Assembly (NCBI GenBank): GCA_036346225.1
Contig: JARFIW010001215.1
Span: forward strand, 8,322,501 to 8,386,500
Direction: 5' to 3'
DNA length: 64,000 nucleotides
Source of the DNA: Platerodrilus igneus
Lineage: Eukaryota > Arthropoda > Insecta > Coleoptera > Lycidae
The notes under the pieces: model-generated
Told to the model about the DNA's origin: nothing
Databases searched by the model: none
What the model saw: only the letters and a program-made list of their open reading frames with translations
Shown: positions 5,912 to 59,050 of the stretch, in pieces
How positions within the stretch are numbered: position 1 is the first letter of the stretch
Layout of the letters: every line of letters starts with the position of its first letter
Program-made: the position numbers and the translations under genes

Positions 5912-6456
5912 TATTACAGCCCCGTCGTCGAGATACGCGAGCCACTATGTCATTTGGTAGCGATGTTAGATAATGTAAAATTGATGCGCAAATTATAGAT
6001 GACGTCACACAATTATATAAAATTTCTCCATCACATAAAAAAAGAAACGGAAATGCTACTCACATAATTTGCAGGGCTTCTTGCAGAATTACTCCATGAT
6101 GGCGGCGGCGGCTTCGCTAATCTTTCTCGGGCGTCGGCTGCTTCGCTGATCTTTCGGGCGTGGAAATTCTTGAGCCCGGTTGAATGCAAATTCAAATTGT
6201 CTTCTCTCTATATGTAGATACAAATAAGGTAAGGGAGACAGGTAAAGGCACGATAATTTGGAGTCACAGGAAACCTACATATCAAAAAAAGACACGATAC
6301 GATACCAGCCAACTACACTTTTTCACGTCTCGGAGGCTAGTCCTAACACGTATTCGGAAATCCACCACTTTCTCCTTGGCCCACCGCGTCGGCGCAAATC
6401 TCGCTCAACGCACTATCTGAAGTGACGGAAATACGCACACGTTATTTCAAATTTAT
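5912..6456 (-). repeat. LTR-like repeat, copy 1
   Basis: This 545-bp block is about 95% identical to 7979-8524, in the same orientation. Related, more diverged copies lie at 60030-60434 and 61770-62177. I place it on the minus strand because the better-preserved copies start there with TGTTAC. On that strand all four copies keep GTGAGT, a splice-donor-like string (here 6058-6063), which suggests a spliced leader within or next to the LTR. The 78-codon plus frame inside both near-identical copies shows no domain and is probably incidental. Confidence 0.55.
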
Positions 6457-7978: not shown

Positions 7979-8591
7979 TATTACAGCCCCGTCGTCGAGG
8001 TACGCTAGCCACTATGTCAGTTGGTAGCGATGTTAGATAATGTAAAAATTGACGCGCAAATTATAGATGACGTCACACAATTATATAAAATTTCTCCATC
8101 ACATAAAAAAAGAAACGGAAATGCTACTCACATAGTTTGCAGGGCTTCTTGCAGAATTACTCCATGATGGCGGCGGCGGCTTTGCTAATCTTTCTCGGGC
8201 GTCGGCACCTTCGCTGATCTTTCGGGCGTGGAAATTCTTGAGCCCGGTTGAATGAAAATTCAAATTGTTTTCTCTCTATATGTAGATACAAATAAGGTAA
8301 GGGAGACAGGTAAAGGCACGATAATTTGGAGTCACAGGAAACCTACATATCAAAAAAAGACACGATACGATACCAGCCAACTACACTTGTTCTCGTCTTG
8401 GAGGCTAGTCCTAACACGTATCCGGAAATCCACCACTTTCTCCTTGGCCTACCGCGGCGGCGCAAATCTCGCGCAACGCACTATCTGAAGTGACGGAAAT
8501 ACGCACACGTCCTTTCAAATTTATGGCGCGAAATTCTTACAAATTAATACTTAATTGGGATGTATAGTTCCGAATTTTTCGGCACGTAACA
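7979..8591 (-). repeat. LTR-like repeat, copy 2
   Basis: Matches 5912-6456 over its first 546 bases. It then continues to a TGTTACGTGCC terminus on the minus strand at 8591, aligning with the TGTTACATGCC start of the 60434 copy. The splice-donor-like GTGAGT is at 8126-8131 (minus strand). The left border adjoins the possible primer-binding site of the core, as expected for a 5' LTR of a minus-strand element. Confidence 0.5.
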
Positions 8592-11345: not shown

Positions 11346-11439
11346 TTAGCAGCTAATCAAATTGATGGATAATTATCAAGTCTATCTATTGCGAAACCAG
11401 TTAACACAGTTATTTAGAAATATATACCCCGAATATAAA

Positions 11440-11800
11440 TTTTTCCAGGATCCGAAGATCTGGTTGCCTACCTACACCTAGTTATCTCTTACTGCTAGGG
11501 GGAGATGGGCATGCACTGCTAAAGTCCTGGTGGGTATGCACTAAATGTTATGGGGATCACTTTCACTATCATTTTTTAAGTCCTGGGCGGGATGCGCGGT
11601 TTCACAGTAATTTAATTTCTTAGTTTGATTTATTTATGAATTTTAAGTTAATTAAGAAACCTGATTTAGTTTTTTATTTATTAACAGGGTTTAGAGTTTT
11701 GATTTAATAGCCGATGTTTTTCCGTTTTAGGACAGACAGTGACTGATATAGTGTGAAATTCATCGTACATATTTAGATATGTGGGAGTTTTATTTTGTTG
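11440..11800 (-). repeat. 3' UTR segment of an R1-like LINE
   Basis: Aligns with 22420-22760. Landmarks are CATCCGAAGATCTGG (reading CAGGATCC... here), CACTGCTAAAGTCCTGGTGG, GTATGCACTAAATGTT, ATCACT(T)TCACTATCA and GGATGCGCGGTT. In both places it lies downstream, on the minus strand, of ORF2 remains of an R1-like LINE. I therefore read it as that family's 3' untranslated region. The 3' tail hairpin seen at 21644-21673 was not found in this copy. Confidence 0.55.
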
Positions 11801-12359
11801 TTTTGTATCGTGAGATAGGTTTTGGGCCTTTGGGAGCTTCTTTTTAAAAAGACTTCATTTCCAAATTTACACTCCTATCAAGTGTATTTTAATTTATACA
11901 GAAATTATAAGTGAATTTAATAAATGGTTACGTTCTGTTCATTAACGTTTAAATCAAAATTAATGAAAGTTACTTTCACTAATTAATTAATTAAAACTAA
12001 ATTGAGTAGCTTGAACAACCAACAATGTTAAAGTTGTGAAGCTCGAGACTGACTGGCCATCTTGGGCTTCTGTGGGTATTTATGCTATCCCTGCCCCTCA
12101 CATTGCTTGTGGGAACTGCGGATTTCATGTCTGCTATTTCTTGATACAATACAAAGTATTGCATTTTAATAATCTTAATTCTAATAATTGTTGTCTTATT
12201 GTCTACTGTGACCTGCCCCTGCAGTGTCATATTACGTCTGGAATACAATTTAACTGTTTCCGTTCTCATATCTGGTTTGTGAACTTTCATTAGCCTTTTA
12301 TTATGTTCTTCAATTATACAATGTAACAATAATTCTTAAATCTTAATAATAACAAGCAC
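11801..12359. other. Stretch between LINE ORF2 and its 3' UTR block
   Basis: Both strands of 11997-12329 are open for about 85-110 codons (minus strand the longer), but no domain is recognised. It may be extra material inserted between the degraded ORF2 end and the UTR, or decayed coding sequence. Confidence 0.3.
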
Positions 12360-15330
12360 TTATTTCAATTGTATTAAAATGAGTTTTATAGAAATAAATC
12401 GAGTTATTACATGATAATGCGTGTTCGGGGGCGCCTCCTTTAACAGGTAGCTATACAAAATATCTAAGCGAAGGTGTCGGAATATTTGAGAGCCAGTGTA
12501 AATTGAATGAAAATGTTTAGGAATGTAACAATTTAGCGGCCTCGATACCAATGGGTACGATGTAAGAAACTCCCCTGTTGCGGCCTCTTTGACCAGTTCT
12601 TCTGCTCTGTCGTTTCCTCGATTGCCGCCATGCGAACTAACCCAATTAAATTTCAAATCTCGAAATCCGAGTGCCGTGTGCGTTATTCCCCAGACGTCTC
12701 CTTGAAGATCTGTAGAGGTGATCATATTTGCCAGAGCAGTCAGGGCCGATTTGCTATCGCTAATGATAGAGTACCCACTTGTATCTGAGTGGTTGATGAC
12801 GTACTGCATAATTTTTCTTATAGCTACCAACTCGCACTGAAATATTGTATTTCAGTCCGCAAGCTTAGTTTAGAATCTGAACATTCCCTTTCCTCCTTAT
12901 ACACAACGAACACCGCTTTTGCTTGCCCATCGTCAATTCGCGAGCCATCTGTATAAATCCTAATTCCCCGCTGCCTTTTCATCGCCTTTGACAAACTTGA
13001 GCCCCTTAAAATCAGCCGGGTGCCCTAGTTCCCAAAAAACAATTTTCCTGTCAACCTCCAATCTGAAAAGACCAAGATTTTTGACAATTTCCCGCTTTTT
13101 TTCTATATCTACGAGTCTCTGATCTGTTTATCGACAAATTCGATTGGAAGCATCCTACTAATGACCAAGACCACCTCCGTGGAAGTGATTCTGTACGCTC
13201 TTGCCGCCCTGACCGCGGTTATGCGTTGAACGCTCGCCAATTGTCAGATTTACCTGACCTTACAACCCACCGTCCAAACAGATGTCGCATACAGCGTCTC
13301 CGGTTCTATTGCTCTGGCGTAGACTATCCTCTGAATCCCCAGCTTATTTTCGCTGTCACCATAACTCTCTTAGATAGTACAATGCCCTTTTGACATATTG
13401 CACGCGAGCCTTCCAGTTTAATATGTTGTCTAATTTAACGTCGAAGTATGTGATGGATTCCTTCAATGAAACCTTTTCCCCTCATAGTTCTAACCTGGGA
13501 GGATGGTATCCCGGTTTTGTTCCAAAATAATGCGCCTCCGACTTTGTCATGTTGAATTTCAACTTGACTCCTGCCACCATTTATGCAACCTACACAATGC
13601 CTTATTCGCTTTCGTGCGCATCTACATTAACAATTTCGACCTGATAATCAACAGCGTATTATCCGCGAACCCAACAATAGTGTACCCTAAAGATGGTTTC
13701 ATACAACCAATTCCAGAACATGTGACCAGAGCATAACCCCTAGGGGTTTCACTGTTTCCCAAACGATTGATGTCCCTCGGGCAGCTTTAAATGTTCCTGA
13801 GATGTCCAACGCCACGACGATACAATACTCTATTGTTTCTCTCGCCTGCTTGATTTTTCGACTACGAACTGTAACGCGTCGCTAGTCGACTTACCCTTTG
13901 CGAATCCAAATTGTCTCCTATTAAAACCGTCGCTGTCTTGCACAGCGTGCTCAACTCGGGTGATCATAACTCGATCCAAAGCTTTCCACAGTACCGGTAG
14001 CAAACTAATAACTGCTCGGGTCGGACACACCTGCGCTCATCGGTTTGAGAATAAACTTTACCTTATAAACCTTCCCGCAACGTGGAAATACATCGTTCTC
14101 CAAAATAAAGATTAAACAAGCCGACAAAGGCATGTGGGGTCAACAGGCACGGCACCAGAGCTGCATCTGAGGTGATTCCATCATGCCCCGGTACCTTGTT
14201 AGGGCTCATCCTCCTAAGAGCCCTTACGACCTCATGACCCAAGATTGCCTTATCGGTACATGTCCCTTGCGCCTCTGCAGCTCCTCGACGTATCAAACCG
14301 TGTGACGCCTCATCCTCCTCTGGATTGTCCGATGGGAAGAATTTCTTTAGCAAATATTCCGCCGTTGATTAAAAACTTTAGTATATTCGCAATTTGTTTT
14401 TCTTATACTACCGATTTTTCGTTGTTTACCTCTTATTACGCGGCATGCTGTTCCCCATGGTTCCTTCTCAGAATTTCGCGTGCATAATTATTTGAATTTA
14501 TTTGTTCTCGTTTCTTAAATTAATCTTTTATATTCTACTTTGGCCATACTCGATTTTCCGTTGTTCTCTTATTTCTCCCGAGGCGCGTTGACAGCTGCAC
14601 CTTAGGTTACGCGTTTCTACCCGCTTGGTGGTTAACTCCCGGGTCTACCAAGGTACGCTTTCTACCGCGGCATAGAGTACGACGACGCGTCTACTATCGC
14701 GTCGTTTCATTTTTGCGCGAGGGTTTCTATTTGGGTGACCTCTCGGCAGTTTAATAGTTCGTTCTCGACCGCCGAAATACTGTTGTTAAATTTTTGTTTA
14801 AATATCCCCCAATTTGCTTTTTACTGCAGAACCATGGAAAGGTAGTTATTTGCTCGTTTGCGCTTGTCTAGGCATCAACATCCCACGTTATTAATTTATG
14901 GTCAGAAAGCGTTACGTCGTTCGACCTCAGTTCCCAATTTGATTTAACAAGCCCTCGGTTTGGAGATTTACCCGCCGGGAGTCGACCGGCGGAAGGTAGG
15001 CGTCTAACAGGTAAAATGTATTTAATCCTGTTTTTATTTCGGCCGTCGTTAAAAACTCGTTCGATAAATTATTTAGTGTTATTCCTGCGCACGTCCCATT
15101 ATTTTAATTATTCCGCTGCGCGGTCGTTCGCCATCTGTGTCCAATACGGTAACCCCCCGACCAAAACTCGCTATTTTATGGCTATACATGTGCGGTTCCT
15201 GTATAAGTTCGATGCCGATCTTGTTCTCGTTGAATAACTTTAGGAAGTTATTTGTGCTCTCCTTGCCTTTACCGATATTTAATTGTGCGAATTTAATCTC
15301 CTTACTTCTTTCAGGTTTTATTTGGTCTTA
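12360..15330 (-). pseudogene. R1-like LINE ORF2 (endonuclease, reverse transcriptase, RNase H), degraded
   Basis: Read on the minus strand, an APE-type endonuclease starts near 15310 with FAQLNIGKGKES and LIQEPH, and ends with TLSDHKL near 14900. The reverse transcriptase follows: PNKVPGHDGI near 14185, ISLLPVLWKALDR near 14000, QFGFAKGKSTSDAL near 13900. The palm box reads GFADNTLLI near 13660, where the second Asp of the usual [FY]-x-D-D is Asn. Thumb-side motifs KSEAHYFG and then YVKRALY follow. RNase H shows IYTDGSRIDDGQA near 12945, SDSKSAL near 12760 and WVSSHGGNRGNDRAEEL near 12620. The frame is broken repeatedly by indels and stops, so the copy is dead. The C-terminal C-x-C-G...H...C domain is missing. 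Domain order and motif wording fit the R1/I group, where the protein would nick the target and prime reverse transcription. The exact clade needs a tree. Confidence 0.85.
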
Positions 15331-15397
15331 ACAATCTATGATCGATGTTGCGTGTGACTGCGTTTTTCAGACGTAACATCGTGCGGCATCTGTTCGA

Positions 15398-15671
15398 TGG
15401 CGTCGCCGTGGATCAATGTAGTAAGCGTAAGACTACGGATCCCAAGGTCCTGGGTTCAAATCCCAACACAAAATTTTCACAAAAATTACGCCCTCGTTCG
15501 GATGAGAGGTAAAATGGAGGTCCCGTGTGTGAGTGTTGTCACGCACGTTAAAGATTCCTACCTTGCCTAGAACGGCAAGGGTTCGGCAAAATTCTAAATT
15601 TGCAGGCAACAAAAAACTCGCCTCCTGGCCAATGTAGTACCTTCGGGTGGAGCATTGGAAATGTAAATGAA
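15398..15671 (+). mobile_element. tRNA-derived SINE S1, full length, with 14-bp target duplication
   Basis: The head (15401-15470) resembles a tRNA gene. An A-box-like GTGGATCAATG is followed by a B-box GGGTTCAAATCCC. The body contains CGCCCTCGTTCGGATGAGAGG and ACGCACGTTAAAGATTCCT. The 3' part holds a 30-nt hairpin at 15629-15658 (outer stem CCAATG/CATTGG, inner stem ACC-TTCG-GGT). The insertion is flanked by perfect repeats CGGCATCTGTTCGA at 15384-15397 and 15672-15685, which fix the borders. It sits between ORF1 and ORF2 of the R1-like LINE. Transcription would be by RNA polymerase III and mobilisation would depend on a LINE enzyme. Confidence 0.9.
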
Positions 15672-15689
15672 CGGCATCTGTTCGACCTA

Positions 15690-16860
15690 ACGTCATGGCG
15701 CGTATCGCTTTCGCGCCACCGCTTGTTGTGTCGTTTGCCCTGGCGCAAACCACACACTAATGTACTGCCTTCTGGCAATGCTTGAATTCATGCCCGACTT
15801 CGGCACAGTTACCGCACCATTGTACCTTTTCCCTGCATTTTATCGATCGATGGCCATACTCGTAGCACCGGCGGAACTGCGTCATCGAGAAGTGGTCTTG
15901 GGCCCACACTCTTCGCCACCTGAGGTTTATAGCATCAGCTAATATGCGTCTTCAAGTGTGGAGGTTACTTCAAAGACGACGTTGGCGAAAGGGATCCCTT
16001 TCCGCCAAACCTTTGAGCATCCTTCGAGCTACGACAACAACAAACTCGTTACGAGCGGGATCGACTTTCTTCCTCAGGATCGACATGACGTCCGTACTCC
16101 TCTCATGGCATTGTGTCGACCCTGACGGCAAACATAGGCGTAGCTCAAGCAGCTGCTGCAGCGTACGGTGTCTGGCCTGGCACCGACGTTACCTTACTCC
16201 TGGAACACTGCTGACCTGAAACAGCACCGATTTCCGCTGGACCTCCTGTTACAAGACTTGCCCTTCCAGTATCCCTTATGCAAGGCCGCAATACCCGAAT
16301 CTTATCCATTAGTTGATTTGCAACGTCTCGGAACTCGTCCGCGGCGTTCTAAATCACCTTCCTGACGTCGGTAGCAATCGTGGCGTAGGTTGTGGGCACC
16401 CTCTTGTGGATGACAGTATGCGCCTTTCTCGCCCTAAACATCAAAATGTCCATCTCGTGGACACCACTAGTAACAACAATTCCTTCCGTTATTCCTAGTC
16501 AACATCTTGCACTGTCCTCTCGATGTTGAGGGCAATTCCAGCACTGCAACATCCACAAAGAGCTTTGTCTCTCCCGGCCCGACCGCCGCGCAGGTTTCCC
16601 CGACATCTCGACCTTCTGCTGAGTCTCCAATATCACGTCTTTTGGCATCACCTTCAGTCTTCCCGACCGTGCTCTCAGTCTCTTACGTAACTGATTCCGT
16701 TTTATGGCCCCTCTTCCTCCTTGACAGCGGCTCGTCGTCTCGATGGACCACCATGATGACAAAAAAGGACAAAACAACTACAAGAAATCCAGCTGAAAAG
16801 AACGACAGGAACGTGGCGACGCTTAAACGACGCAAAGATAAAATAAACCACTAAACGTCA
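15690..16860 (-). pseudogene. R1-like LINE ORF1 (gag-like, CCHC zinc knuckles), degraded
   Basis: On the minus strand the end of the ORF (about 15880-15740) shows two zinc knuckles of the C-x2-C-x4-H-x4-C type (CYEYGHRSIKC preceded by C-x2, and CGNCAEVGHEFKHC) and the start of a third (CVVC). A stop interrupts the second and third. Upstream parts are basic and proline/serine-rich but shifted among frames. ORF1 proteins of R1-group LINEs bind the element RNA. Position and strand place it directly upstream of ORF2 at 12360-15330, separated now by SINE S1. The true start is not determined. Confidence 0.7.
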
Positions 16861-17764
16861 CAAATAGCAGTGACGACAAAAAATAAAGTCGCTAGCCCAA
16901 TAAAAATTCTTTGATTACTTATGAAATGAACCGTAAACAATCCTCTATTTATTTATTTTAATTTCAAACCTCCAATAAAAATTTAAACAAACGAATTCAC
17001 TTCAAGAAATCAAATTTATAAAATCCTCAACTTTGGTTGGTCCGTTCGAATTTAACTATTCAAACGAACGATCAGAATGCAATGGAATGCAATGGAATGC
17101 GGCGCCAAAAATCCACTAATAACTTTTCTTACTCGGTGACTGTGTAAGGTTGTACTGTTACACCACTAGTTTTACAAAAGCTCGATTTAAACTAATTTAA
17201 GTATACGCGCCTTAAACTTTAAAATATTTTATTTAATTTTAATACAAAAATTACCGTTTTGGCGCTATATGTTTAATTCAAAAAGGGTCTTGCTTTTATG
17301 GTTGTTATTTTATTATACGCGCACTACAAAAATTTTACAAATTTATTTGTTGGTTTTATGGGGTTTTTGACCCGATTTACGCGATTTTTGCGATAAAAAC
17401 TCCTAATTTATTACAAACGCCTTTTAGTTGTTTTTGAAATTGTTTTTTTAGGTGCTAATTTATGGGGTTTTTGATTCATTAAGTCAAAATTTAATTTTGT
17501 TTGGATTTGAAAGCGGACTTTAGTTAAAATTTAAAGCAAAATGCACTTTATTTATTATTTAACTGCTTAAAGTTTTGTTTTTTGAGTTTATCACACTGCC
17601 CCGGATACGGAAAATTAATGCCGCGCAGTATTATTAGAACAGACAATAAAAAGCAAACGTTTAAAGTGAAAAATATAAAAATACCTATATAAAAACTTAC
17701 GTGTAACAGTGAAGTTCGGAGTTCTACAAAATACGCCCGCTCGGTTCAGCTGCTAACAAAGAAG
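16861..17764. other. AT-rich stretch left of SINE S2, nothing coding
   Basis: Contains a short GGAATGCAAT tandem at about 17078-17100 and otherwise AT-rich DNA. Since the LINE lies on the minus strand, part of this may be its 5' UTR. No specific evidence was found. Confidence 0.3.
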
Positions 17765-17822
17765 TGATTCTTGTATACCTTACATTTGATTTTGCAATGC
17801 TCCACCCGAAGGTACTACATTG
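17765..17822 (-). mobile_element. SINE 3'-tail fragment
   Basis: This carries only the SINE tail hairpin (GGTACTACATTG side retained) and the short AT-rich tail ending in TCTTGTATACC. It abuts the target duplication of SINE S2, so a second copy landed next to, or recombined with, an older one. Confidence 0.7.
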
Positions 17823-17837
17823 TATTCTTGTATACCG

Positions 17838-18138
17838 TGCATTTATATTTCCAATGCTCCACCAGAAGGTACTACATTGGCCAGGAGGCGAGTTTTTTGT
17901 TGCCTGGAAATTTAGAATTTTGCCGAACCCTTGCCGTTCCAGGCAAGATAGGGATATTTAACGTGCGTGACAACACTCACACACGGGACCTCCATTTAGC
18001 CTCTCATCCGAACGAGGGCGTAATTTTTGTGAAAAATGCTCACGTCATTTTTCAAGCAGTCAGCCCTGTCGGGATTTGAACCCAGGACCTTGGGATCCGT
18101 AGTCTTACGCTTACTACATTGATCCACGGCGACGCTCC
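17838..18138 (-). mobile_element. tRNA-derived SINE S2, minus strand, 15-bp target duplication
   Basis: It is the same family as S1. On the minus strand the head is at 18138-18065 (A-box-like GTGGATCAATG, B-box GGGTTCAAATCC), the body near 18030-17940, and the 3' hairpin around 17853-17882 with loop TTCT instead of TTCG. The flanks TATTCTTGTATACCG at 17823-17837 and 18139-18153 are identical and define the insertion. It lies upstream of exon 1 of the KIAA1549-like gene. Confidence 0.9.
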
Positions 18139-18153
18139 TATTCTTGTATACCG

Positions 18154-18849
18154 CGTAAAGCTCCTTTAAATGTACGTGCGGGTCCTATTAGGATCTATGG
18201 CCTATTTATTGGCAGATTCGCAACGAAGTTGTTGCTGACATTAAAACTAAAAACACCTGTAAGGTATTAAGAGAAGGAAAGGTGAATGAGTTTACAAATA
18301 ACTTCACTTCATTTCACTCACTAACTGCAACTGTCTCTGATTATCATGTCTGTTTAAGCCAACTTGTAAAACCCCCGTACTCTATCATCGTCTTTATTGG
18401 TTGAGGCAATAGCGCACGTTACTTCAAAGCGTGTGGAAACATACCGAAAAATGCATGTAATAAACTATAAGGTATTCCTCTAATAGTTCATGGAAATTCA
18501 ACAACCGCATTTTTATATATCATAACCTACTTATACTAGATAAATTATGATGGGAAATACTCTTTAATTTAGGATTGGAAATCCCCTAATTTTAATCATT
18601 AAATAAAGTTTGTAACGCAAAAAAAGGATAACATGTTGAAAATATTGTTGTACTAGATTAATAATTTAAATGTTAATAAATATCTAAATGTTGTTTAATC
18701 ATTCAGTGAAATTCCAAAAAAACGAAGAGCTTCGACCTTTCGATTGGTACTCAGAAATCGCAACGTAGCGCCCATTTAAAAATATTTTTTTCTTTGTTAT
18801 TTATTGATTTCTATCGTATACATCTTCATTAATACTTTTATTTTTATAG
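18154..18849 (+). other. Intron sequence upstream of exon 1
   Basis: AT-rich and non-coding, ending in a polypyrimidine-like TACTTTTATTTTTATAG acceptor before 18850. Earlier exons of the gene must lie upstream, probably outside the window or unrecognised. Confidence 0.5.
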
Positions 18850-19034
18850 AATTAGTTGTAATCGAAAACAGTCTTAACGAGAGAACAGCCTATCGTCTAG
18901 AAGACTTTTTTTGGACAGGTTCCGGCGATGGGAACCCCGAAGATTGGTCATCTGAACATCCGCCAACTGTATTTGAAACAAAAACTATTTTATCCACGAT
19001 ATATCTCACATCGCCATCAATTTCCTTTAATCAG
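18850..19034 (+). CDS. KIAA1549-like gene, exon 1 of those visible (ectodomain)
   Basis: The exon is bordered by ...TTTTTATAG and CAG|GTCAGT. Its first two bases complete a codon begun upstream, and it ends in phase 0. It encodes about 61 residues with an acidic/aromatic stretch (LEDFFWTGSGDGNPEDW) followed by a beta-strand-like segment rich in T, I and S. Joining to exon 2 keeps the frame. The family link comes from exons 3-7. By itself this exon would not be identifiable. It would be part of the large extracellular region. Confidence 0.75.
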
Positions 19035-19160
19035 GTCAGTAATAAGTAATGTATAAACGGTCGATTAATTAATTCGTAAATATTTGAGCGAAAGCATGTA
19101 TGTTTGTGCTAGTTTATTAATTATACATTTATGCAAACGAACTATTTTTTGTTGCTTTAG

Positions 19161-19390
19161 ACACTTCAAACAAAATGTTCGTTCAATTGTGAAAGTGCTT
19201 TGACACCTGAAGGGGAAATTAACCCAACACCTACGTATAGTAGTTATGAAAATAATACCGAGGAAGGCCTCATGTCAGAAGCTGATCGCCAATTTTGGTT
19301 ATTGACAGTTCTTAAAGGTCGTGGAAAAGATCCAGTAGTAAATGATTTGAAAAATAGTTTGGAAAAATTGTATAAAACTGCTTTTGAAAG
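19161..19390 (+). CDS. KIAA1549-like gene, exon 2 (ectodomain)
   Basis: The acceptor is GTTGCTTTAG and the donor GAAAG|GTAAGT. It enters in phase 0 and leaves with two bases (AG) of an Arg codon. It has two cysteines near the start (KCSFNC), an acidic loop, then an amphipathic stretch DRQFWLLTVLKGRG and a helix NDLKNSLEKLYKTAFER. The FWLLTVL and LEKLY-x-x-AF pattern fits the membrane-proximal folded region of KIAA1549/KIAA1549L proteins, from memory of the family. Exon 3 continues the same helix (R-QQERH). Confidence 0.8.
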
Positions 19391-20340
19391 GTAAGTTGTA
19401 ATATTCTGCCACGTATCATTACCGAGCTGTTTGTGTAATTATACAAGTAAGTGAGCTACAATGAAATTCTTTCATACTTAGAGAATGGCGCAATGCCATC
19501 ATTATAGAATGCTGACAACTATTAACTATTACATGTGTCTTTGTAGTATTTGGTATTGCAGTTGGAATGTGTACGAGAATATTTTCGTGTTATTGGGTGT
19601 TATTGCTTAATTTACCCTACACCCTTCTTCTGCGCGAAGCAAAAGCTTCCTACAGGATGATTTCGCCTTGCAGTACAGGTTATGAACAATAAATTATTAT
19701 GAGTGCTCAAAGTTTAAATGGTTAAACTGCTTACAAATAAATTTATATACAAATACATTTCTATTTATAGATTAATTGCACTTTCTTATATAAACTAATA
19801 TGTACGACCGTCTTATTCGTAAATGCTGATTATAATGTTTTTTTATTTATATATTTTTTTTCTAAGTGATAGTGAACAATTTTCAAAACCATATTTAAAG
19901 ACAGAACAGATTTTTCACAACGTAGCTGCTTGACCCCTAGGTACACAAGTTGCAAGCGCCCGTGGACAACGTTCGCATTCTACTGACTCTGACAGTATGG
20001 ACATCAATACTGACAATCAATACCAACGCGAGTTATGTATCCCCAATATATATGTACCATTAATAGAAAGTATTAGAAATTATTAAGAATTATAAAGAAG
20101 TACTAAGTTAGATGCAACATTGTATCTCAAGGATAATTAAATAAAGGTTAATGAAAGTTCACAAGCAAGTTGTGAGAACGGATGCAATACATTGTATTCC
20201 AGACAATAGTGATACTGCAGGTGGCAAATCACAAATGGTTAAGAAACCGCAATTACTTAGAAATTAAGATTGTTACATTGTATAATGAATAGAATTAAGA
20301 AATAAGCAGACATGAACTCTGTAAGTTCCCATAGACATGT
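19391..20340 (+). other. Intron 2, proximal part
   Basis: AT-rich non-coding. The part from about 19860 to 20340 may belong to an LTR-like block whose promoter-like end is annotated next. No second copy of it exists in the window. Confidence 0.35.
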
Positions 20341-20349
20341 GAGGGGCAG

Positions 20350-20400
20350 GGACAACATAAATACCCCGGGAGCCCCAAGACCATCAGTCAGTCTAAGTAT
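20350..20400 (+). promoter_or_regulatory. TATA plus initiator-like core promoter
   Basis: ACATAAATACC at about 20354-20364 is followed, roughly 30 bp downstream, by ATCAGTCAGT (about 20387-20396), which matches the arthropod initiator TCAGT. This spacing is typical of insect LTR promoters. The downstream sequence reaches TTTGTTACA near 20541, a possible LTR end, but the partner LTR is absent. Confidence 0.35.
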
Positions 20401-20539
20401 TTCAGCTTTAACATTATTGTTTAACTAGGCTACTCGCCCTAATATTAGTTCAATTATTACTTTAACTTCGACTTAGAATATTTACAACAGATTGTCAAAA
20501 TTCCATAATTAACGTCTGTTTAAACTAATAAAATTTGTT

Positions 20540-21603
20540 ACAAGTTTTGGAAGAAGTTTTTAAAAAAGACCGCTCCCAAGGTCGGAAACGTAACTCGCGG
20601 TAAACCGCAAACACAGACTAGTAGGACAGGACTAGACGAAATAACGAGACAAAAGAAACGCAAACGGGAAAATGATAGCCCAAATGAAAAATTACCGGAA
20701 AAACCTTTAGTACAGGAGGTACAGGACAAATACCTATAAGTTATACACTACTTAGACAACACGCTTTATCCTACAAACAAAGTATCAAAAGAAAGAAAGA
20801 AAATACTGAAGGAGTATATCACACATATGTCATTTTTAAGAGCACAAGTAAAAGGCGAAAGAGACGCAGTACAAAAAGAGAATGAACAGCATAAGGAGGA
20901 AATAAAAAAATTAAAAGCACAACCCACACCTACACCATTCCCATAGCGCAGGACACACAAATGCAAAGACTAGGACCAAAACAAGATGCGATAGAACGAG
21001 CAAGACAAACGACGAACAATACGCTATTTATAACCTCCAAAACGAGAGAAACCTCAAGAAAAGTGGCTGAAATCTTTACAAGCACAATAAAACTAGCAGA
21101 GCAGAAAATAAAATAAAAAATATGCGCACAACAAATAAGGTCCTGATCATAGAGACTGAATCAGAGAAGGACATACAAACATAGTTAGCAACCAAGGCAT
21201 ACACAATGCATTGAGATGTGAACTTCCGAAAAAGTGTAACCCGTTGGTAGTCATTTATGATGTTCCAACTATACTCAAAGACGACAAAATACATACGGCC
21301 AAACACAGACAAAATATAGAAGCCATTATGTCGGTCAAAGAATTTAAAAGAAAATTCATCTTGAGACTCAAAACCGGTCCAAAAAGAAAACAAACTCAGT
21401 ATCATGTAGCCGAGGTCACACCGGAGCTAAGGAAAAAAATACTGACAAGTGGCAAAATATATATTGAATATAGGACATTAACAATAAAAGATTACCTGGT
21501 GGTACCACGTGCACCAGATGCCAAAATCTGGGACGTGTGTCAAAGCATTGCTCCAGAACCAAGGAAACATGCGCCTGCTGTGGATGAGAAAACGACAGAG
21601 ACA
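20540..21603 (+). pseudogene. LINE 2 ORF1 (gag-like), 5' part, degraded
   Basis: Plus-strand pieces in changing frames include a lysine/glutamate-rich coiled-coil-like region (about 20780-20930). Next is NNTLFITSKTRETSRKV (about 21018-21068), then an uninterrupted 132-codon piece at 21211-21609 with NPLVVIYDVP and RLKTGPKRKQ. The wording VIYDVP...LKTGP...YIEYR...RDY is the C-terminal gag domain of I/R1/Jockey-type ORF1 proteins. In the next frame a zinc knuckle appears (CTRCQNLGRVSKHC, about 21511-21552) in which the expected His is Arg. The ORF is then split by another LINE, and its remaining knuckles resume at 23089. Confidence 0.75.
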
Positions 21604-23088
21604 TTATAATTTGAATTAGGGCCGCTATACTTGCGCCACGTCCCCAATGCTCCACCCGGAGGTACTACATTGGGTTTAAACGCGAAAAATAGTCGTGCTC
21701 CTAATTTATTCTTACTTCATAGTTGATTCACCCTAAATAAAAACTAAATAAAAATCTAACAAACCTAACAAACTCTAACAATCTAACAAACCTAAAAATC
21801 TGACAAAAACTGGAACAAAAACAAAACAAAAACTAATAACAAAGTTGTAAATAATGGTATCCCTAGCGCTGACTTTCGAGTGTACCCGATCAACAAGCAA
21901 AAATGAGGGGGGGGAGGGATCCGTAATACCGGATAGCAGACGCCGGCTCTACCCTGAAGGGTCGTCTTAAAACTATCCAAATCTAGCTAACTAATTTAAA
22001 TCCATCCCTAGCTTTCCCTATCGTTCCCTAACTGATTTACATTATGATTACAATCTTCGCAATTCTGCTCGTCCTTCCCAAATATATACTGCAACCAAAA
22101 TGGCGACAGAACGTCAAACAAAACAAATATGCCACATAATACATGCTATATATAAATAAATATAAAGTGTAAATATAAAATATAAATAAATATAATTATG
22201 TAAATATATAAATAAATGTTTAATAAGCGTTAAGCATATAGCAGTGCACAAAATAGCGAAAGCATCACCCTATTTATCAGGTGCACTCGCACAAGCATTA
22301 TGTCTGCTAGCGCCTTTACACACCAAACGTGCTTCTTAAATTATTTCAAAACTACTAATTAATGCAAATCAATGCTTGTGCGAGTACAGCCGCCACAATT
22401 TAAGTCTTACCTCGATAATAAAATTCTCCAGCATCCGAAGATCTGGCCGTCTGTAACTTACTTCTAAAGGTGGGACGGGGTGCACTGCTAAAGTCCTGGT
22501 GGGTATGCACTAAATGTTCTTGGGGGGGATCACTATCACTATCACTTCACAGTCCTGGGGGATGCGCGGTTGCGCTCTGTTTTATTATCCTTGTTTACTT
22601 TATTGATTTAATTTAATGAGGGTTTATGATTTATTTGTTATTGTTTATTTGGTATTATTTATTGCGATTTTCCGCACATAATTATGAAGATAGGCAGTGA
22701 TTGTATTAATGGAGTGGGGGTTTCTCGTGCATATTGGACATTTTGGTATAATTATCTTTTTTTTTTTTTTTTTTAATTTAATATCAGGTTTTGGTAATGC
22801 TCGTATCCCTACTCACGCCAACTCAATCTAAAAATTTTCAATCCTCCCACCAACCCCACCGAATTTTTACACGCGGTCGTCATTGATTGTCTAATCTCGC
22901 GACACTTCCCGCGAATTCTTTTAAGGCTGTCCAGAACGCCTTCTGGTTAACTACTTCCCCGACTTCCTCTAGGCTCTTTGGCCATGCCAGACCTAGGATA
23001 GCTAGTTTGCTATCGGCCAACCTTCGATTTCCCGCCTCAAGCGGGCAGTCGAAGAGCACGTGCTCTGCGCTTTCCGCGCCCTCACCGC
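21604..23088 (-). mobile_element. 5'-truncated R1-like LINE inserted in LINE 2, with 13-bp target duplication
   Basis: The flanks AACGACAGAGACA at 21591-21603 and 23089-23101 are identical. Read on the minus strand, the insert begins inside the ORF2 C-terminal domain (CGEGAESAEHVLFDC, EAGNRRLADSKLAILG, about 23088-22990). That domain ends near 22880. The insert then runs through a 3' UTR that includes the block shared with 11440-11800 (22420-22760), and ends about 40 nt after a tail hairpin at 21644-21673. Other contents are a (T)23 run at 22759-22782, an inverted repeat at 22285-22385 and an A/C-rich CTAACAAAC repeat at about 21733-21835. Variable 5' truncation and a target duplication are the usual marks of target-primed reverse transcription. 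Confidence 0.85.
21644..21673 (-). promoter_or_regulatory. LINE 3'-tail hairpin shared with the SINEs
   Basis: On the minus strand the outer stem CCAATG/CATTGG encloses an inner stem ACC/GGT closed by TCCG. This is a 30-nt element nearly identical to the SINE 3' tail (15629-15658), where the loop is TTCG. Both loops fit UNCG. In known LINE/SINE pairs such a shared 3' end is the recognition site for the LINE reverse transcriptase. That role here is an inference. Confidence 0.7.
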
Positions 23089-24215
23089 AACGACAGAGAC
23101 AGCAACCATAAGAAGATTAACTGTCCTAATAAAGATAGGGCAATATCGTGTATTCCATGTCAAAGGAGAGGGAAAAAGTGCACAGGAGACCAGAGAAGTT
23201 GTCCGACACACAAAGTGCTACAAAACAGACTAATACAACGCACTGACTATGGACAACACAACCACAACACGACGCATTTAGAAATAGCGTAACACTTAAC
23301 AAAACTAAACATAACAAACGACAACAAACCAAAAAGGAATCCACCATCACAACAAAAACTTCTTACGAGCACAAAAACATATAGCTTCCCAAATATCCAA
23401 AACCCTTGAAGATAGAGGGATCCAAACTAAAATAAAAAATTTCAGTATTCCTGGATGAAAAGCCAAAGAAAAAGAACAAACAAAAGAGAATAATAAACAT
23501 TTTAAAGGGAAAATCAGAAGAAAAACACACTAACGACATAGGCGAAGAACAACAAGACATAGTATATGATGAAAAGCACCAAGAGACCGAAAATGAACCA
23601 TCACAACAAGAAACCTGTAACTCGGCGAATATATACAAACATATTAAAAACATACCGCAAATAACAACACTAGAAGACCCCCAAAATCTGACAACGGCCC
23701 TGCAACACGTAATCAGAACGGGACATTCAAATGGAAAGAAAATTACTTTTCCAACCATCGAATCCGTGGGCAGAACAATATGACCACAGACGTAAATGAA
23801 CTGACAAGACCACTACACGCCGTCTTTAATAGATGGGACGAAATCCTGAACTTGGATGAAATTTACAACCAATTCGTAGTGGCACATGGAAAGATGTCTG
23901 TTGATCTCACCAAACCCTGCTCTCAGGCAATTATGACCACCAAATACGCTAATGGATAGAGATCTTAAAATAGCAAAAATAAACTCAAACTGAAACAAAA
24001 CAGTTAACCAGGAACTAAGAAAGATTGCCGAACAAGCAATAGACATCATAGCAATCCAAGAACCATACACCATAAATAAACAGATAAGGGGAATGCCAAG
24101 CACGACAATGACAATATGCAAAGGAGACGCACCAAAATCAGGGATTATAATTTCCAATAAATTGATAATAACAACCGTCATACAAAAATATACCAACACA
24201 GAAAGTTTTTTTATC
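23089..24215 (+). pseudogene. LINE 2 ORF1 end and ORF2 start, degraded
   Basis: Directly after the target duplication the ORF1 frame resumes with further zinc-knuckle residues (HKKINC, CIPCQRRGKKC, CPTHK). A decayed part follows. From about 23960 an ORF2 endonuclease start is visible: KIAKINSN, then QELRKIAEQAIDIIAIQEPY and IRGMPSTTM...GIIISNK. The I-D-I-I-A-I-Q-E-P motif carries the catalytic Glu region of APE-type endonucleases. The sequence stops matching near 24215, so reverse transcriptase is absent. The wording fits the I/R1 group and differs from the minus-strand LINE inserted into it. Confidence 0.7.
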
Positions 24216-25040
24216 TCTTCTTCAACACCTGCAACTAACTATTTTCATACGTTTCATCTATTATTTTCATCCCTTCGACATCATCTTCTGGAGTTTCCAA
24301 TAATTCTGAGTTTTTCTCTAAAAACGATACAACTTCTCTTCTAACTTCACCAGGGCACTTACTACTTAAACTTCTACCCCCTCCACCTTACATCTCCTTC
24401 TCAAATTGATTTAAATTCATACAATCTCCTTGTACTTCCATATGAACTTCTTCGTCCCATTTAGTCCTCTCATCTCCTATAATTATCACCTTAATCTCGG
24501 TATCTATTATACCTTTCATCTAACTTATAAAATCCTCTAAAATTTGTATCACTTTTCCTCCAACTTCAAATTTCATTTCTTCAATGGCTTTGTTAGTTTC
24601 CTCTAAACCCAAAATTATTCTTTCACTAATCTCTTTAAATTTCCTTTCATTCTTTTCACTTTCTAATCTTAAACTTTCCCCAATGTTGCTATGTTCTCTC
24701 CAAATTCTGCTCGTAACTCCTGAGTATTTTCATCAAATCTCCCACTCATTTCTTTTATATTCTCTTTCACTTCTTGCATGCTTTTCTCATTCTTTTCACT
24801 CATTTCTTTCATGCCTTTCTCATTCTTTTCACTCATTTGTTTCATATTTTCTTTTTGTTCCTGCATACTTTGATTTACACTTAATAAAAGAGCCATTATT
24901 TTTGATTCCTGGGTTTCTCCTACACGCTTGGCCTCTGGATTCTCCTTTTTCGCTTCTTCCAAATAAACGCTTTCCTGAGAACCAATTTTCACTCTCTCAG
25001 CTCTCAAACTTTCACGAACTTGTTTCACTCTGTCGGTCAT
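24216..25040 (-). pseudogene. LTR-element gag fragment with long coiled coil
   Basis: On the minus strand a 123-codon frame (25040-24669, Met start) begins MTDRVKQVRESLRAER. It continues with repeated 11-residue units of the type MKQMSEKNEKG and MKEMSEKNEKS, a strong coiled coil. After a frame break the same strand continues with charged helical sequence to about 24220. Layout (MTD start, coiled coil before the capsid) is like the intact gag at 41848-43662, although the sequences are not close. It abuts LINE 2 abruptly. No capsid motif, protease or reverse transcriptase follows. Confidence 0.5.
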
Positions 25041-36286: not shown

Positions 36287-36290
<4 letters not shown>

Positions 36291-37690
36291 ATGTAAAGGG
36301 GGGGGGTACAAGGCTTCTAAGGGTAGATTTGTGTTAAAAAGGGTGTATGCCAAACGACATAATTCATATATCAGATCCAGTAAGTTAAAAAAACTATATT
36401 TTGCTGTACTTTACATATGCTAAAGTATGTACCATTTTAGTTTGAAACGCATGTGCCAAAGGTAAACAAAATGACTTTATGACGTTGATACAATGCACGG
36501 TACTTGAGGTTTTATACTGAGTTGATATTTTATAAGCCATTGAAAGTACATTTGCCGTCGGAAAACCGGACGCGTCTATGGATATCTACAATCAACCAAG
36601 CGTCCAGGTCTTGTGTAAATATTTTGGCTTTTCATTTAAATAGAATCAACTTTGGACGAATTGTAATATCAAAATTATAAGTGAATAGAAATATAAAATA
36701 TTATTGGAGAATTGTGAAGTGTTTAGGACCAATGGTAGAAATTATGAATGTATATAAAGACTATAGTGAAGGTATTTTGGACACTAGAGTAAAGACGAAT
36801 TGTTATTGGATATTGTATGCGTTTAAAATGTAATTAAGTAAGCTGATGTTGTTATGCTTATTGCTTAGCGAAGTAAATAAAGGGATTTTTTGATTAATTC
36901 GTATAAAAGTGTTTGCAAACCTGGTTAAAAGCGAAATAATTTGATGAAATAAATTTTTTGAGTTAAATAGTCGATTAAAGTGAAATAAGAAGTCGAGATA
37001 AAGAGATATAGGAAAAATTTAGAGTGGTTAATAGGCGACGGAAAGCGAGATTTAGAGGTTTGAAGAATTGGATTGGATTTGGGGATTGGTAAACGACGCA
37101 GGAGATTCGAATTAAAGGATAGGGCTAGAGGGATATTGAAGGAATGAGGAAAGGTGATTGGAATACGCAGGAAGATTAGTGGATCGGAAAGGCGAAGGTG
37201 ATTGACTAAAGGAAACAGAAGCAGCATTTCAAGAAAATTAAGAGGGAGTAACAAGGTTTTCAAAATTTAAAATTAGGGTAAATTATTTCAGATTTGGGGT
37301 GAAAATTGTAAGAACACTAAGGGATACGCAATAACAGGATTTGAATCCTGTGAAGGTCTACGTAATAATTAGAGCCAGAAATTTAAAAAGGCATTATCGA
37401 GTAAATTAGTAAGTACGTTAAATTAAAACCAAAATTAAAGTAGAAATTGATACATAAATTAATTTGGAACATAATATTCATATAAAAAGTGGAAAAAACG
37501 GTTATTTGGTTGGGAGTGACATATCAGATTAACCCACTGATTGGTGAAGCCTAGATAAAGGTTTCATATAGTGAGGATAAAAATAGGGAACGTAAATGTA
37601 ACCACAAATTTGCTAAAAGCAATCAATAGAAGCATATATGATAAAAAGTAGGGGCAAGAAAAAGTCGGTATCGAATTTAAAATTGGAACC
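36287..37690 (+). mobile_element. LTR 1 of the plus-strand element
   Basis: It starts TGTTATGTAAAGG followed by a long G run, as at 44753. The first 600 bp match LTR 3 almost exactly. From about 36885 onward it loses bases at short intervals relative to LTRs 2 and 3 (see findings). Confidence 0.8.
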
Positions 37691-41697: not shown

Positions 41698-41847
41698 AAT
41701 TGGCAAACCCAACGTGGAGGCTCGAAAAAAGGCTAGAAAAGTACTAGAGTGAAAGATAGTAAGATACGGGATCCCGAGATTAGGTGGGGCCCGTAGCTTT
41801 TTTCTTTATTATTTTGCAGAAAACGAGTTCAAAACTAGGAAGCAGAG

Positions 41848-44519: not shown

Positions 44520-44752
44520 TTTATTATGTAGTTTATGCAACGGAAAGTTTAGTTTTTGTTTTTTTGTTTATAGTATAGGTTAGTATATAGCGTAGTAAGA
44601 TAGATGTGAGAGAAAGGCGAACAAGGGTTGACTAATTGAGATGTAAAAATGCGAGAGGGTGATTTTAAATAAAAATTAGAAATTTATGCACACCAGGGGA
44701 AGAGAAAAAAACATACAGAATTTCCAATTTCATTCAAAATCAGTGGGGCCAA

Positions 44753-52064: not shown

Positions 52065-52160
52065 TAAACATATCCTTGTCGTCATCAAAATTATCATTTA
52101 ACACATCTTTGTCGTCATCAAAATTATCATTTAACACATCTTTGTCGTCATTTAACACAT
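52065..52160. repeat. Short tandem repeat in the element interior
   Basis: Three units of ATTTAACACATCTTTGTCGTC with intervening ATCAAAATTATC (period about 36 bp), the last unit shortened. Non-coding. Confidence 0.7.
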
Positions 52161-53503: not shown

Positions 53504-53521
53504 GCCCCACGTTGGGCGCCA
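53504..53521 (-). promoter_or_regulatory. Primer-binding site, tRNA-Lys type
   Basis: TGGCGCCCAACGTGGGGC on the minus strand, directly inside the 5' LTR. This 18-mer is the well-known complement of tRNA-Lys1,2 used by several retroelements. Confidence 0.85.
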
Positions 53522-53522
53522 G

Positions 53523-55495: not shown

Positions 55496-55800
55496 GTACC
55501 TTTACATTTCACTTTCCAATGTTCCACTCGAAGGTACTACATTTGCCAGAAAACGATTTTTTACCTAAAAATTTTGAATTTTGCCAAATCCTTGCTATTC
55601 CAAGTAAATAAGGTAGGGATCTTTAACGTGCATGACAACACTTACACATGAGACCTACATTTTATCTCTCTTCCGAGCAAGGGCATATTTTTGTGAAAAA
55701 TGCTTGCCTAATATTTTTCAAGCGGTCCGTGTTGGGAATCGAAGCGAGGACCTTGGGATGAGCAGTCATACGTGAACCTGTCTGATCCATTTAGCCGCCC
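55496..55800 (-). mobile_element. tRNA-derived SINE S3, older copy
   Basis: Same family as S1 and S2 but with more substitutions. The 3' hairpin at about 55519-55548 has the inner stem weakened (CTCGAAGG). The body has CTTTAACGTGCATGACAAC. The head near 55730-55795 has a decayed B box. A possible 7-bp duplication CAAGAAT flanks it (55489-55495 and 55801-55807). It lies 35 bp from the end of the LTR element. Confidence 0.8.
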
Positions 55801-56433: not shown

Positions 56434-59050
56434 TGGGAACACCTTGCGAGTCAGGGCGAGGAACGTTAGGAGCATGAAGCAAGTAGGCAAGTTAGAGTAA
56501 TTAAAAATTGAAATGGATAGGCTAGCATTAGATATAGTAGGGATTACTAAAGTTCCATGGCCAGAGGCGGGAGATTTGTGGAGCAGAAACTTTAGGATAA
56601 TTTATACAGGATCAGAGAAGGTATATTTATGTGGGGATAATTCTGTAGAAAAAGATACGACACTATATAAAACTTATGGTTATATCGAAATCTAAACTGG
56701 TTAATACAGTAATAATGCAAGTGTACAAGTCCACCTCTAGCTACGGTGAGGAATAAGTAGTAGCATCTACAAAATACCCCTACATTTGATTTTTTTCTTT
56801 CCACTGCTCCACCAGAAGGTACTACATTGTCCAGGAAGCGAGTTTTCTTTACCTGGAAATCTTGAATATTGCTGAACCCTTGCTGTTGCAAGCAAGGTAA
56901 AGATCTTTAACGTGCATGACTACACTCACCCACGGGACCTCCATTTTACCTTTCATCCGATCGAGGGCGTATTTTTGTGAAAAATGCTCGCCTAACATTT
57001 TTCAAACGGACCATGTCGGGATTTGAACCCGTCTCTACAAGATACCCTATATGTGATTTTTTTCCAATGCTCCACCCGAAGGTACTACATTTGCCAGGAA
57101 GCAAGTATTTTTAACCTGGAAAATTTTGAATTTTGCCGAACCCTTACCGTTGCAAGCAAGCTAGGGATCTTTAACGTGCGTGACAACACCCACACACGGG
57201 ACCTCCATTCTACTTCTCATCCGAACGAGGACGTATTTTTGTGAAAAATGCTCGCTTAACATTTTTCAAGCAGACCGTGTCGGGATTCGAACCCGGGACC
57301 TTGGACGTAGTAGTCACACACATACCAACTACGCCACGGAGCCGCCTCTACAAGATACTCTCTCATCCGAACGAGGACGTATTTTTGTGAAAAATGCTGG
57401 CTTAACATTTTTCAAGTGGACCATGTCGGGATTCGAACCCAGGACCTTGGACGTAGTAACACACATATCAACTAGACCACGGGGCCGCCTATCTCTACAA
57501 GATACCTTACATGTGATTTTCCAATGCTCCACCCGAAGGTACTACATTGGCCAGGAAGCGAGTTTTTTTTACCTGAAAAATTTTGAATTTTGCCGAACCC
57601 TTGCTGTTCCAAGCAAGGTAGGGATCTTTAACGTGCGTGACAACACTCACACACGGGACCTCCATTTTACCTCTTATCCGAACGAGGATTTTACAAGATA
57701 CCGAAGACATACTAAGATTCGTAAAAAGATATGAAAATTTCATAATTGCCTGAGATTAATGCAATGGTAGGTGAGGGTAGGGAAGGAGCAGTAGTAAGTT
57801 TATTCGGTTTAGGCACGAGAAACGACAGGAAATAGGTTGATAGAATTTTGCGACAAAAACAATTTAACCATCACAAACACATTATTTCGACATCATGCTA
57901 AAAGACGATACACATGGAAGATACCAGGAGATGTAGGAAAATATCAAATAGATTAAAATCTTGTTAGACAATGATTTACGAATCAAGTAAAAGGCTGTAG
58001 AAGCTACCCAGAAGCAGATGTAGACCTTGACCACAACATTGTAATTATGAAGGCTTCTTTTAAATTTAAAAATTTTAGAAAAAGGAACGGAAAAAGACAC
58101 TTTGAGAAACTTAAAGATAAAGATATTCATGAAAGATTTGAAAAAGGTCAAATGAATTGGTGAAAGATTTTAGGAACATTTCTGATAGTAAGGAGGTAGA
58201 AACAGAATGGAATAACTTTAAATCCTGCTTAGACTTGGCGGCCAGAAATATTCTGGAGTATACACAAAAAGAAAATAAGAAACCATGAATAACAAAGGAT
58301 ATCCTGAATTTAATACAAAAAAAAAACGAAAATACAAAAACAGACTGGACGAAGCTGGAAACTAGAGATACAAAGCCATAAAATGGTAAATTAATTGCAA
58401 ATGCAAGAAAGTTAAAGAGCAATGGATTGATGAAAGTACAAATATAAGGGGCCCGGAAGGAGACATCATTATAGAAAATGTAGAAAAACTGGTTAGACGG
58501 CTAGGATATATACAGAATTTATATACAGGAAAGGAACTAACAGCACTAGAACAGGATTCAGACATTGAAAACGATGATTTGGGATATCCTATACTTAGAA
58601 TGAGTTTGAATTAACATTAAAAGGCCTGAAAAATGGTAAGGTACCGGGTATAGATAAGGTGCAAGCAGAAACCCTAAAAGCCACTGAACAAGCAGTAACA
58701 GAACATCTCTTCCAACTTGTAAGCTATATGTATGAAACATGCGAGATACCCAAAGATTTCATATGTAACATCATAGTCACAATACCAAAAAAAAAGAGAG
58801 GCGCGGATAGATGTGAAAATTTTCAAACAATTAGTTTGACAGCACACGTGTCAAAAATAGAGGTGTGCACTGACGGATGGAAAAACGGGCCCTGGAAGTA
58901 CTAAGAAAAGATCGGATTTAGGTGAACCAGGTGAACACGGGTGGCTATTTTAGCTCTGAGGGTGATAATGGAGAAGACAATAGAAAAAGGAAAAAGCGTG
59001 TATATAGAGTCTGTAGATCTGAAAAAGCAATTGACAATGGAAAATGGAAA
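56434..59050 (+). pseudogene. RTE-like LINE remnant (endonuclease and start of reverse transcriptase)
   Basis: Plus-strand pieces read LRVRARNVRSMKQVGKLE, MDRLALDIVGITKVPWPEAG and FRIIYTGSEK (endonuclease start, 56440-56620). After the SINE cluster come EDILRFVKRYENFII and NAMVGEGREG (57704-57780), then HGRYQ/TWKIPGD-like and DHN-type endonuclease end motifs to about 58050. A reverse-transcriptase start follows: LKNGKVPGIDKVQAE (about 58622-58670), CEIPKDF and PKKKRGADRCENFQTIS (58740-58835), and AILALRVIMEKTIEKGKSVYI (about 58950-59010). The palm and everything after it are missing. The wording (NVRSMKQ-x-GKL, EDILRF, KNGK-PG-D) is that of RTE/BovB-type proteins. Indels and stops make it inactive. 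Confidence 0.8.
56779..57689 (-). mobile_element. Cluster of four SINE units within the RTE-like LINE
   Basis: Minus-strand units are: A 56779-57033 (lacks the A-box part of the head); B 57047-57346 (complete, perfect A box TGGCGTAGTTGG and B box GGTTCGAATCC); C 57360-57493 (head and middle only); D 57507-57689 (tail and middle only). Every junction carries TCTACAAGATACC or a near match (56766, 57034, 57347, 57494, 57690). Hairpin tails are present in A, B and D. Removing the cluster rejoins the endonuclease of the RTE-like LINE. Confidence 0.85.

What the first reader, a model, noticed from the sequence alone, without database searches (positions are those of the whole stretch)
15629..21673. 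SINE and R1-like LINE share a 3'-tail hairpin with a UNCG-type loop
The 30-nt tail at 15629-15658 (SINE S1) and at 21644-21673 (minus strand, LINE 3' end) are almost the same. Both have outer stem CCAATG/CATTGG and inner stem ACC/GGT. The loop is TTCG in S1 and TCCG in the LINE, both of UNCG type, one of the most stable RNA loops. It recurs in S2, S3 and the 56779-57689 cluster; S2 and one cluster unit have TTCT instead. In known SINE/LINE pairs the shared 3' end recruits the LINE reverse transcriptase. This would identify the parasite's host enzyme as an R1-group LINE.
Basis: partly seen in the sequence, partly recalled or inferred. Interest (0 to 1): 0.82.

Follow-up and report, generated by a model that had tools for sequence, protein, structure and literature searches.

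The report
SINE and LINE share docking hairpin
A short parasitic DNA element and a long self-copying element in one animal genome carry the same small RNA hairpin near their ends, insert at similar DNA sites and are often found one directly behind the other, which points to the short one borrowing the long one's copying enzyme.

Summary
The 30-nt hairpins at 15629-15658 (SINE) and 21644-21673 (LINE, minus strand) match at 29 of 30 bases. The LINE hairpin is not a SINE fragment: it lies 40 nt from the 3' end of a 5'-truncated LINE (21604-23088) flanked by a perfect 13-bp target duplication, and it sits at that place in other LINE copies of the genome, including 5 of 6 chosen for open ORF2 frames. 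Among solved structures the family's endonuclease is nearest to TRAS1 and R1, so the partner is an R1-group LINE. Three further findings tie SINE to LINE: (1) similar target sites, G-Y|T-G-Y (SINE also GG); (2) SINEs in the LINE's own target duplication, 164 exact LINE-end/10-16 nt/SINE-head matches genome-wide, 0 with the backward pattern; (3) insertions of hairpin plus tail only, of both types, and two LINE/SINE joins at the hairpin. The SINE lacks the LINE's second hairpin. Covariation was tested and not found. The SINE looks closer to TTCG-loop LINE subfamilies than to the window's TCCG copy. Binding of ORF2 protein to the hairpin is inferred, not shown.

The parts
15398..15671 (+). SINE S1, 274 nt, TSD CGGCATCTGTTCGA at 15384-15397 and 15672-15685
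   Evidence: head of this SINE family aligned end to end by the Rfam tRNA model at 22.2 bits, below the gathering score of 29 (on relative L049)
15629..15658 (+). shared hairpin of S1, loop TTCG
17838..18138 (-). SINE S2, 301 nt, TSD CGGTATACAAGAATA
17851..17880 (-). hairpin of S2, loop TTCT
17780..17823 (-). S3: hairpin-plus-tail-only SINE insertion (44 nt) between copies of the target GGTATACAAGAAT
21604..23088 (-). 5'-truncated R1-group LINE insertion: ORF2 C-terminus, long 3' UTR, 3' end
   Evidence: 13-bp TSD; ORF2 C-terminus like the ORF2 end read in L022 (by eye); weak zf-RVT match, E 0.055
21591..21603 (+). target duplication, copy at LINE 3' end (AACGACAGAGACA on +)
23089..23101 (+). 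target duplication, copy at LINE 5' end
21644..21673 (-). shared hairpin of the LINE, loop TCCG, 40 nt from the LINE 3' end
21620..21637 (-). place of a second LINE hairpin (GGCCGC-AAGTATA-GCGGCC in other copies; this copy lacks one C); absent from the SINE
57507..57691 (-). 5'-truncated SINE unit of the cluster, TSD GGTATCTTGTA
57521..57550 (-). hairpin, loop TTCG
57064..57093 (-). hairpin of next cluster SINE
56801..56830 (-). hairpin of next cluster SINE, loop TTCT
55516..55545 (-). hairpin of a further, more diverged SINE copy

Best explanation
A tRNA-headed SINE of about 295 nt is copied in trans by an abundant R1-group LINE (about 7.4 kb; ORF2 with endonuclease, RT, RNase H and zinc domains). 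The ORF2 protein is thought to grip the UNCG-loop hairpin that both RNAs carry near the 3' end (inferred). Its endonuclease nicks G-Y|T-G-Y-like sites (motif shown; enzyme inferred), primes cDNA synthesis at the end of the tail, and leaves duplications of mostly 13-16 bp (shown). Because a LINE insertion regenerates its target beside its 3' end, SINEs land there again, giving LINE-TSD-SINE-TSD-SINE chains (chains shown; order of events inferred). The LINE's second hairpin is not needed in trans, since the SINE lacks it (inference). Hairpin plus tail is the smallest unit that moves, as hairpin-only insertions with duplications show.
For: Hairpin identity 29/30. LINE boundary by TSD. Of 29 LINE ends, 26 have the identical hairpin; 5 of 6 copies chosen by ORF2 frame have it. 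Open ORF2 frames up to 1234 aa among the 78 rows scored of 70,093 candidates, counting rows without a stop inside the match. Endonuclease PDB matches: TRAS1 1wdu 1.7e-16, R1 6a44 5.8e-12, R1Bm 2ei9 2.6e-11. Pfam Exo_endo_phos_2, RVT_1, RNase_H; zf-RVT below its cut-off. Target: SINE -2 G 31/38, -1 Y 32/38, +1 G 36/38, +2 Y 32/38; LINE +1 G 41/45, +2 Y 41/45, -2 G 13/17, -1 Y 14/17. SINE head 15-17 nt behind 4 of 63 LINE ends, 0 of 63 on the opposite strand. Genome-wide, LINE end + TG + 8-14 nt + SINE head: 164 exact matches, 0 for the backward pattern. Hairpin-only units with TSDs. LINE/SINE joins at the hairpin, L119 and L121.
Against: No covariation: one pair with a double change, a value reached by 241 of 500 shuffles. 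The SINE lacks the LINE's second hairpin; the shared block is 30 nt, and the likeness of the last ~11 nt was judged by eye, not tested. SINE targets begin GG in 10 of 51, and the SINE targets resolved in this window (S1, S2, S3, cluster) are of the GG kind, not TG, while none of 45 LINE targets begins GG (the first T is partly set by the query). 4 of 45 LINE junctions do not begin TG. L072 showed no hairpin in the 701 nt read. The motif was not compared with other LINE families of this genome. The backward-pattern control is weak, and the antisense control was not obtained. No protein-RNA binding data.
Confidence: 0.85

Rival explanations
1. The SINE is moved by a sister LINE lineage that shares hairpin and endonuclease taste but whose tail fits the SINE better (TTCG loop, TCACAT..TAA end, perhaps without the second hairpin, perhaps with GG targets).
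For: LINE tails with TTCG loop and TTCACAT..TAA exist (L088, L096, L097, L104), closer to the SINE's TTCG and ATCACATGTAA. Of the 4 LINE ends followed by a SINE, two (L090, L100) have TTCG loops. L119 and L121 join LINE 3' UTR, hairpin and SINE tail. The window's SINE targets are of the GG kind.
Against: These tails look like subfamilies of the same LINE. 164 SINE heads sit behind LINE ends with CAAATTATAATG (a CACATTATAA version was not searched), and L015 and L070 have TCC-loop LINE ends. L119/L121 may also be deletions between two hairpins of a LINE-SINE chain.
Confidence: 0.2
2. The hairpin at 21644-21673 is a SINE fragment inserted into a LINE.
For: Hairpin-only SINE insertions do exist (S3; L118, L122, L123, L127, L131).
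Against: No TSD around the hairpin (longest flank match 6 nt, not adjoining it), no SINE tail behind it, and the same hairpin at the same place in other LINE copies.
Confidence: 0.01
3. LINE-SINE chains arise by template jumping in one event rather than by re-cutting of the duplicated target.
For: Template jumps to small RNAs are reported for R2 (PMC3414825, passages seen).
Against: A copy of the target lies between the units in the chains read through (L015, L028, L031, L049), which a template jump would not place there.
Confidence: 0.08
4. Chance or independent origin of two like hairpins.
For: UNCG hairpins are common in RNA (recalled).
Against: 29/30 identity including unpaired positions; gap from 3 to 11 mismatches in the window; similar targets and chains.
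Confidence: 0.005

Closest known systems
Stringent SINE/LINE pairs with a common 3' tail, such as UnaSINE1/UnaSINE2 with UnaL2 (PMC3747384 Table 1; PMC4176376 passages)
   Same: SINE and LINE share a 3' sequence with a stem-loop near the end; autonomous LINE plus tRNA-headed SINE.
   Different: The LINE is R1-group. By the LINE names in Table 1 I see no R1-clade partner, though clades are not given for each row (LfR1 is a lungfish LINE of unstated clade there); the only protostome entry is Gecko with LINEs named I. Sharing here is one hairpin plus a loosely similar end, with the LINE's second hairpin missing from the SINE.
SART1Bm, R1 and TRAS1 (R1 clade)
   Same: Endonuclease sequence nearest to TRAS1 and R1 among solved structures; SART1 needs its 3' UTR, which has stem-loops (PMC7265360, passages).
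   Different: No poly(A) end, RNase H domain present, loose 5-base target motif instead of telomere repeats or 28S rDNA.
R2/R1 hybrid SIDEs of Drosophila (PMC3414825, passages)
   Same: Non-autonomous elements that use R1 machinery through the R1 3' end.
   Different: Not Pol III-transcribed, made of R2 and R1 pieces, inserted at the rDNA R1 site.

Membership tests
Stringent-type SINE/LINE pair | common 3' sequence with stem-loop in SINE and LINE | tested here: met
   the hairpin, and by eye loosely the last ~11 nt
Stringent-type SINE/LINE pair | shared feature kept in LINE copies with open ORF2 | tested here: met
   5 of 6 chosen by ORF2 frame (one of the five has only a 606-aa frame); the sixth unresolved
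Stringent-type SINE/LINE pair | LINE protein binds and needs the stem-loop | not testable with these tools
   bench assay needed
tRNA-derived SINE | tRNA-like Pol III head | tested here: inconclusive
   Rfam tRNA model aligned end to end, 22.2 bits against gathering 29, E 0.1 (one of the two SINEs in L049); ARAGORN finds none; A and B boxes by eye
R1 clade LINE | R1-type endonuclease | tested here: met
   (frame of L012)
R1 clade LINE | RT phylogeny within R1 clade | not tested
   no labelled reference set; the 120 listed relatives carry few names and no clade names
R1 clade LINE | poly(A) 3' end (said of most R1-clade elements in PMC7265360) | tested here: not met
   LINE ends ...ATTATAA directly before the target

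The most novel reading that the evidence does not exclude
The hairpin is a portable RNA module that alone marks an RNA for this LINE's enzyme: reverse transcription often stops at its first base, giving 44-71 nt hairpin-only retroposons. Each LINE insertion then serves as a landing pad where the same enzyme inserts SINEs in chains, so parasite and host are physically linked across the genome.
Probability: 0.45. Interest if true: 0.78.

Novelty: new variant of a known kind. Interest (0 to 1): 0.62.

Why it matters
Shared 3' tails are used to name a SINE's host LINE, often on sequence alone. Here target motif, LINE-SINE chains and hairpin-only insertions give independent genomic evidence, in a LINE group (R1) that I did not find among the partners in the pair table I read. 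It offers a compact substrate, a 30-nt hairpin, for testing how R1-group proteins choose RNA.

Tried and rejected
Rejected: SINE fragment in the LINE (hairpin in other LINE copies). Not usable as support: covariation. Rejected as a target claim: strict TGTCTC specificity, which came from 29 nt of flank in the query; the flank-free query gave TGY. Led nowhere: the hairpin pattern (28 nt) in viral contigs and genome contigs, 0 each; protein searches with the ORF2 end (78-aa frame, padded: none); one search gave 188 relatives, few of the 120 listed with names; Rfam on the window at gathering score, 0; EN-like window frames against the PDB (no LINE match) and ORF2 end (none). Not obtained because the machine was busy: antisense-SINE control and count of LINE/SINE joins. 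Literature: no R1-clade SINE pair in the titles and abstract starts of search listings 17, 23, 24, 48, 49, 107, 123 (two listed nothing) nor by LINE name in Table 1 of PMC3747384; most subscription papers are not held.
Full report
Observation. The window holds eight copies of a 30-nt hairpin within 3 mismatches of S1, seven in SINE copies and one in a LINE; the next best site has 11 mismatches. The LINE and S1 differ by one loop base (TCCG against TTCG). Both fold to the same hairpin.

The LINE boundary. On the minus strand the LINE starts inside the ORF2 C-terminus at 23088 and ends at 21604, flanked by a perfect 13-bp duplication. It sits inside ORF1-like sequence of another LINE on the plus strand (by eye). 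No duplication encloses the hairpin alone.

The family. The genome search placed the window in a genome of 2.71 Gb and 1723 contigs. A 127-nt query gave 40 scored hits of 248 candidates; 20 were fetched as 9-kb stretches. All 20 show the hairpin within 4 substitutions. They hold 22 LINE ends; 20 have an upstream repeat of the target of 13 nt or more, 3 of these in simple repeats where the repeat says little. Nine insertions are about 7.4 kb long. An ORF2 query gave 70,093 candidates, 78 scored, with frames up to 1234 aa among rows without a stop inside the match. Six copies were chosen by frame (1217-1234 aa, one 606 aa): five show hairpin, second hairpin and end in the 701 nt read; one (L072, 1223 aa) does not, and I could not tell whether its end lies elsewhere. 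Endonuclease matches in the PDB are TRAS1 and R1; domains are. The LINE has a second hairpin, GGCCGC-AAGTATA-GCGGCC, missing from the SINE; the window copy lacks one C of it.

A bias found and corrected. The first query included 29 nt of flank, so its hits favoured target TGTCTC. A flank-free query gave 41 rows; 39 loci besides the window's own were fetched. That search skips very common words and so seems to pick diverged copies. 36 of the 39 had a recognisable end. With nine further ends met elsewhere, 45 LINE junctions begin TGT (30), TGC (9) or otherwise (6). The first T is partly set by the query's last base; the G and Y are not.

SINE targets. A SINE query gave 40 scored of 728 candidates. 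One search lists 57 SINE copies, 55 with a repeat of at least 9 nt; some repeats fell within SINE heads or tails of neighbouring units. A rule dropped 17 such rows, and the remaining 38 give G-Y|(T/G)-G-Y. A few of the 38 are off by a base or two in register (for example L060 and the cluster unit), and some are not independent (S2/S3; L062 and L068 share a target). LINE upstream bases agree: -2 G in 13 of 17, -1 Y in 14 of 17, after three microsatellite targets were dropped. Against: the window's resolved SINE targets are of the GG kind.

Chains. In L015 the order is LINE, TGTCTCCGTTTATGA, SINE, the same target, SINE. Four of 63 LINE ends (L015, L070, L090, L100) have a SINE head 15-17 nt downstream, none on the opposite strand; with 8 elements per 64 kb as density (the window has 7 SINE hairpins, so this is on the safe side) P is 2e-8, or 9e-6 for a 32-nt window. 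Genome-wide, LINE end + TG + 8-14 nt + SINE head has 164 exact matches (87 and 77 by strand) and 0 for the pattern read backwards. Of these 100 were listed; some spacers recur (TGCCTTACAACTT, TGTCTGTGAAAACC, TGTATATAGGCTG), so the 164 are not all independent or not all at single-copy sites. Nine of 38 SINE-first loci have two or more head-to-tail SINEs less than 340 nt apart. L031 and L042 show SINEs behind LINE ends, found from the SINE side.

Hairpin-only units. A pattern for the hairpin with an AAA tail but without the two G of the SINE before it has 102 matches, backward control 0. Twenty were fetched, eight of them picked for AC before the hairpin. Six (L118, L122, L123, L124, L127, L131) are hairpin-plus-tail insertions whose target copy ends at or within one base of the hairpin's first base (L124 and the full length in L131 by eye). 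Two (L119, L121) are LINE 3' UTR joined through the hairpin to a SINE tail and followed by a SINE head. Two (L114, L120) are LINE ends. The other ten are SINE copies changed just before the hairpin, or unresolved (L115, L116). LINE-type hairpin-only units are L092, L107, L108 and L103 (the repeats of L108 and L103 are imperfect) and L037; S3 in the window is a SINE-type one. These show that hairpin plus tail suffices as a template. That reverse transcription stops there is an inference.

Subfamilies. All 29 LINE ends have TCC loops (28 TCCG, 1 TCCA); they lean to window-like copies by the queries used. Many diverged LINE ends have TTCG, and TTCACAT tails were seen with TTCG and not with TCCG. 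The SINE has TTCG in 49 of 56, commonly with ATCACATGTAA. So the SINE looks nearest to TTCG lineages of this LINE; no tree was made.

Against. Covariation is absent. R1 assignment lacks a tree; there is RNase H and no poly(A). The motif was not compared with other LINEs of the genome. Binding is not shown.

Literature. PMC3747384: passages and Table 1. PMC4176376, PMC9191728, PMC8010984, PMC3272025, PMC7265360, PMC3414825: passages only. PMC4176376 says that pairs were found in several clades such as CR1, Tad1 and RTE, and that SART1 needs its 3' UTR.

Noticed in passing
window 12300-16900, minus strand: Decayed R1-group LINE with ORF1, EN, RT and RNase H pieces resembling the frames of L022; SINE S1 is inserted in its ORF1 region. 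Same family by eye only.
   Followed up: partly
window 11370-11825, minus strand: Relative of part of the LINE 3' UTR (73% over 227 nt in the best piece); no hairpin within 13 mismatches near it in the scan.
   Followed up: partly
window 20500-24250, plus strand: Another R1-like LINE with an ORF1 zinc-knuckle pattern by eye, split by the hairpin LINE.
   Followed up: partly
L119, L121: LINE 3' UTR joined at the hairpin to a SINE tail, then a SINE head: template switch or deletion between hairpins.
   Followed up: partly
L118, L122, L123, L124, L127, L131, L092, L107, L108, L103; window 17780-17823: Insertions made of the hairpin and tail only, target copy ending at or near the hairpin's first base.
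   Followed up: partly
L012, L025, L026: LINE copies inside TGTCTC-type simple repeats; L026 has a second truncated LINE in tandem.
   Followed up: no
window 36287-46362 and 48993-55026: Near-identical direct repeats (mostly 94-100%, one copy 79%) with long gag-like and pol-like frames at 41839-44519: probably young LTR elements.
   Followed up: no
window 5977-6276 and 8045-8344: 300-nt direct repeat, 98% identical.
   Followed up: no
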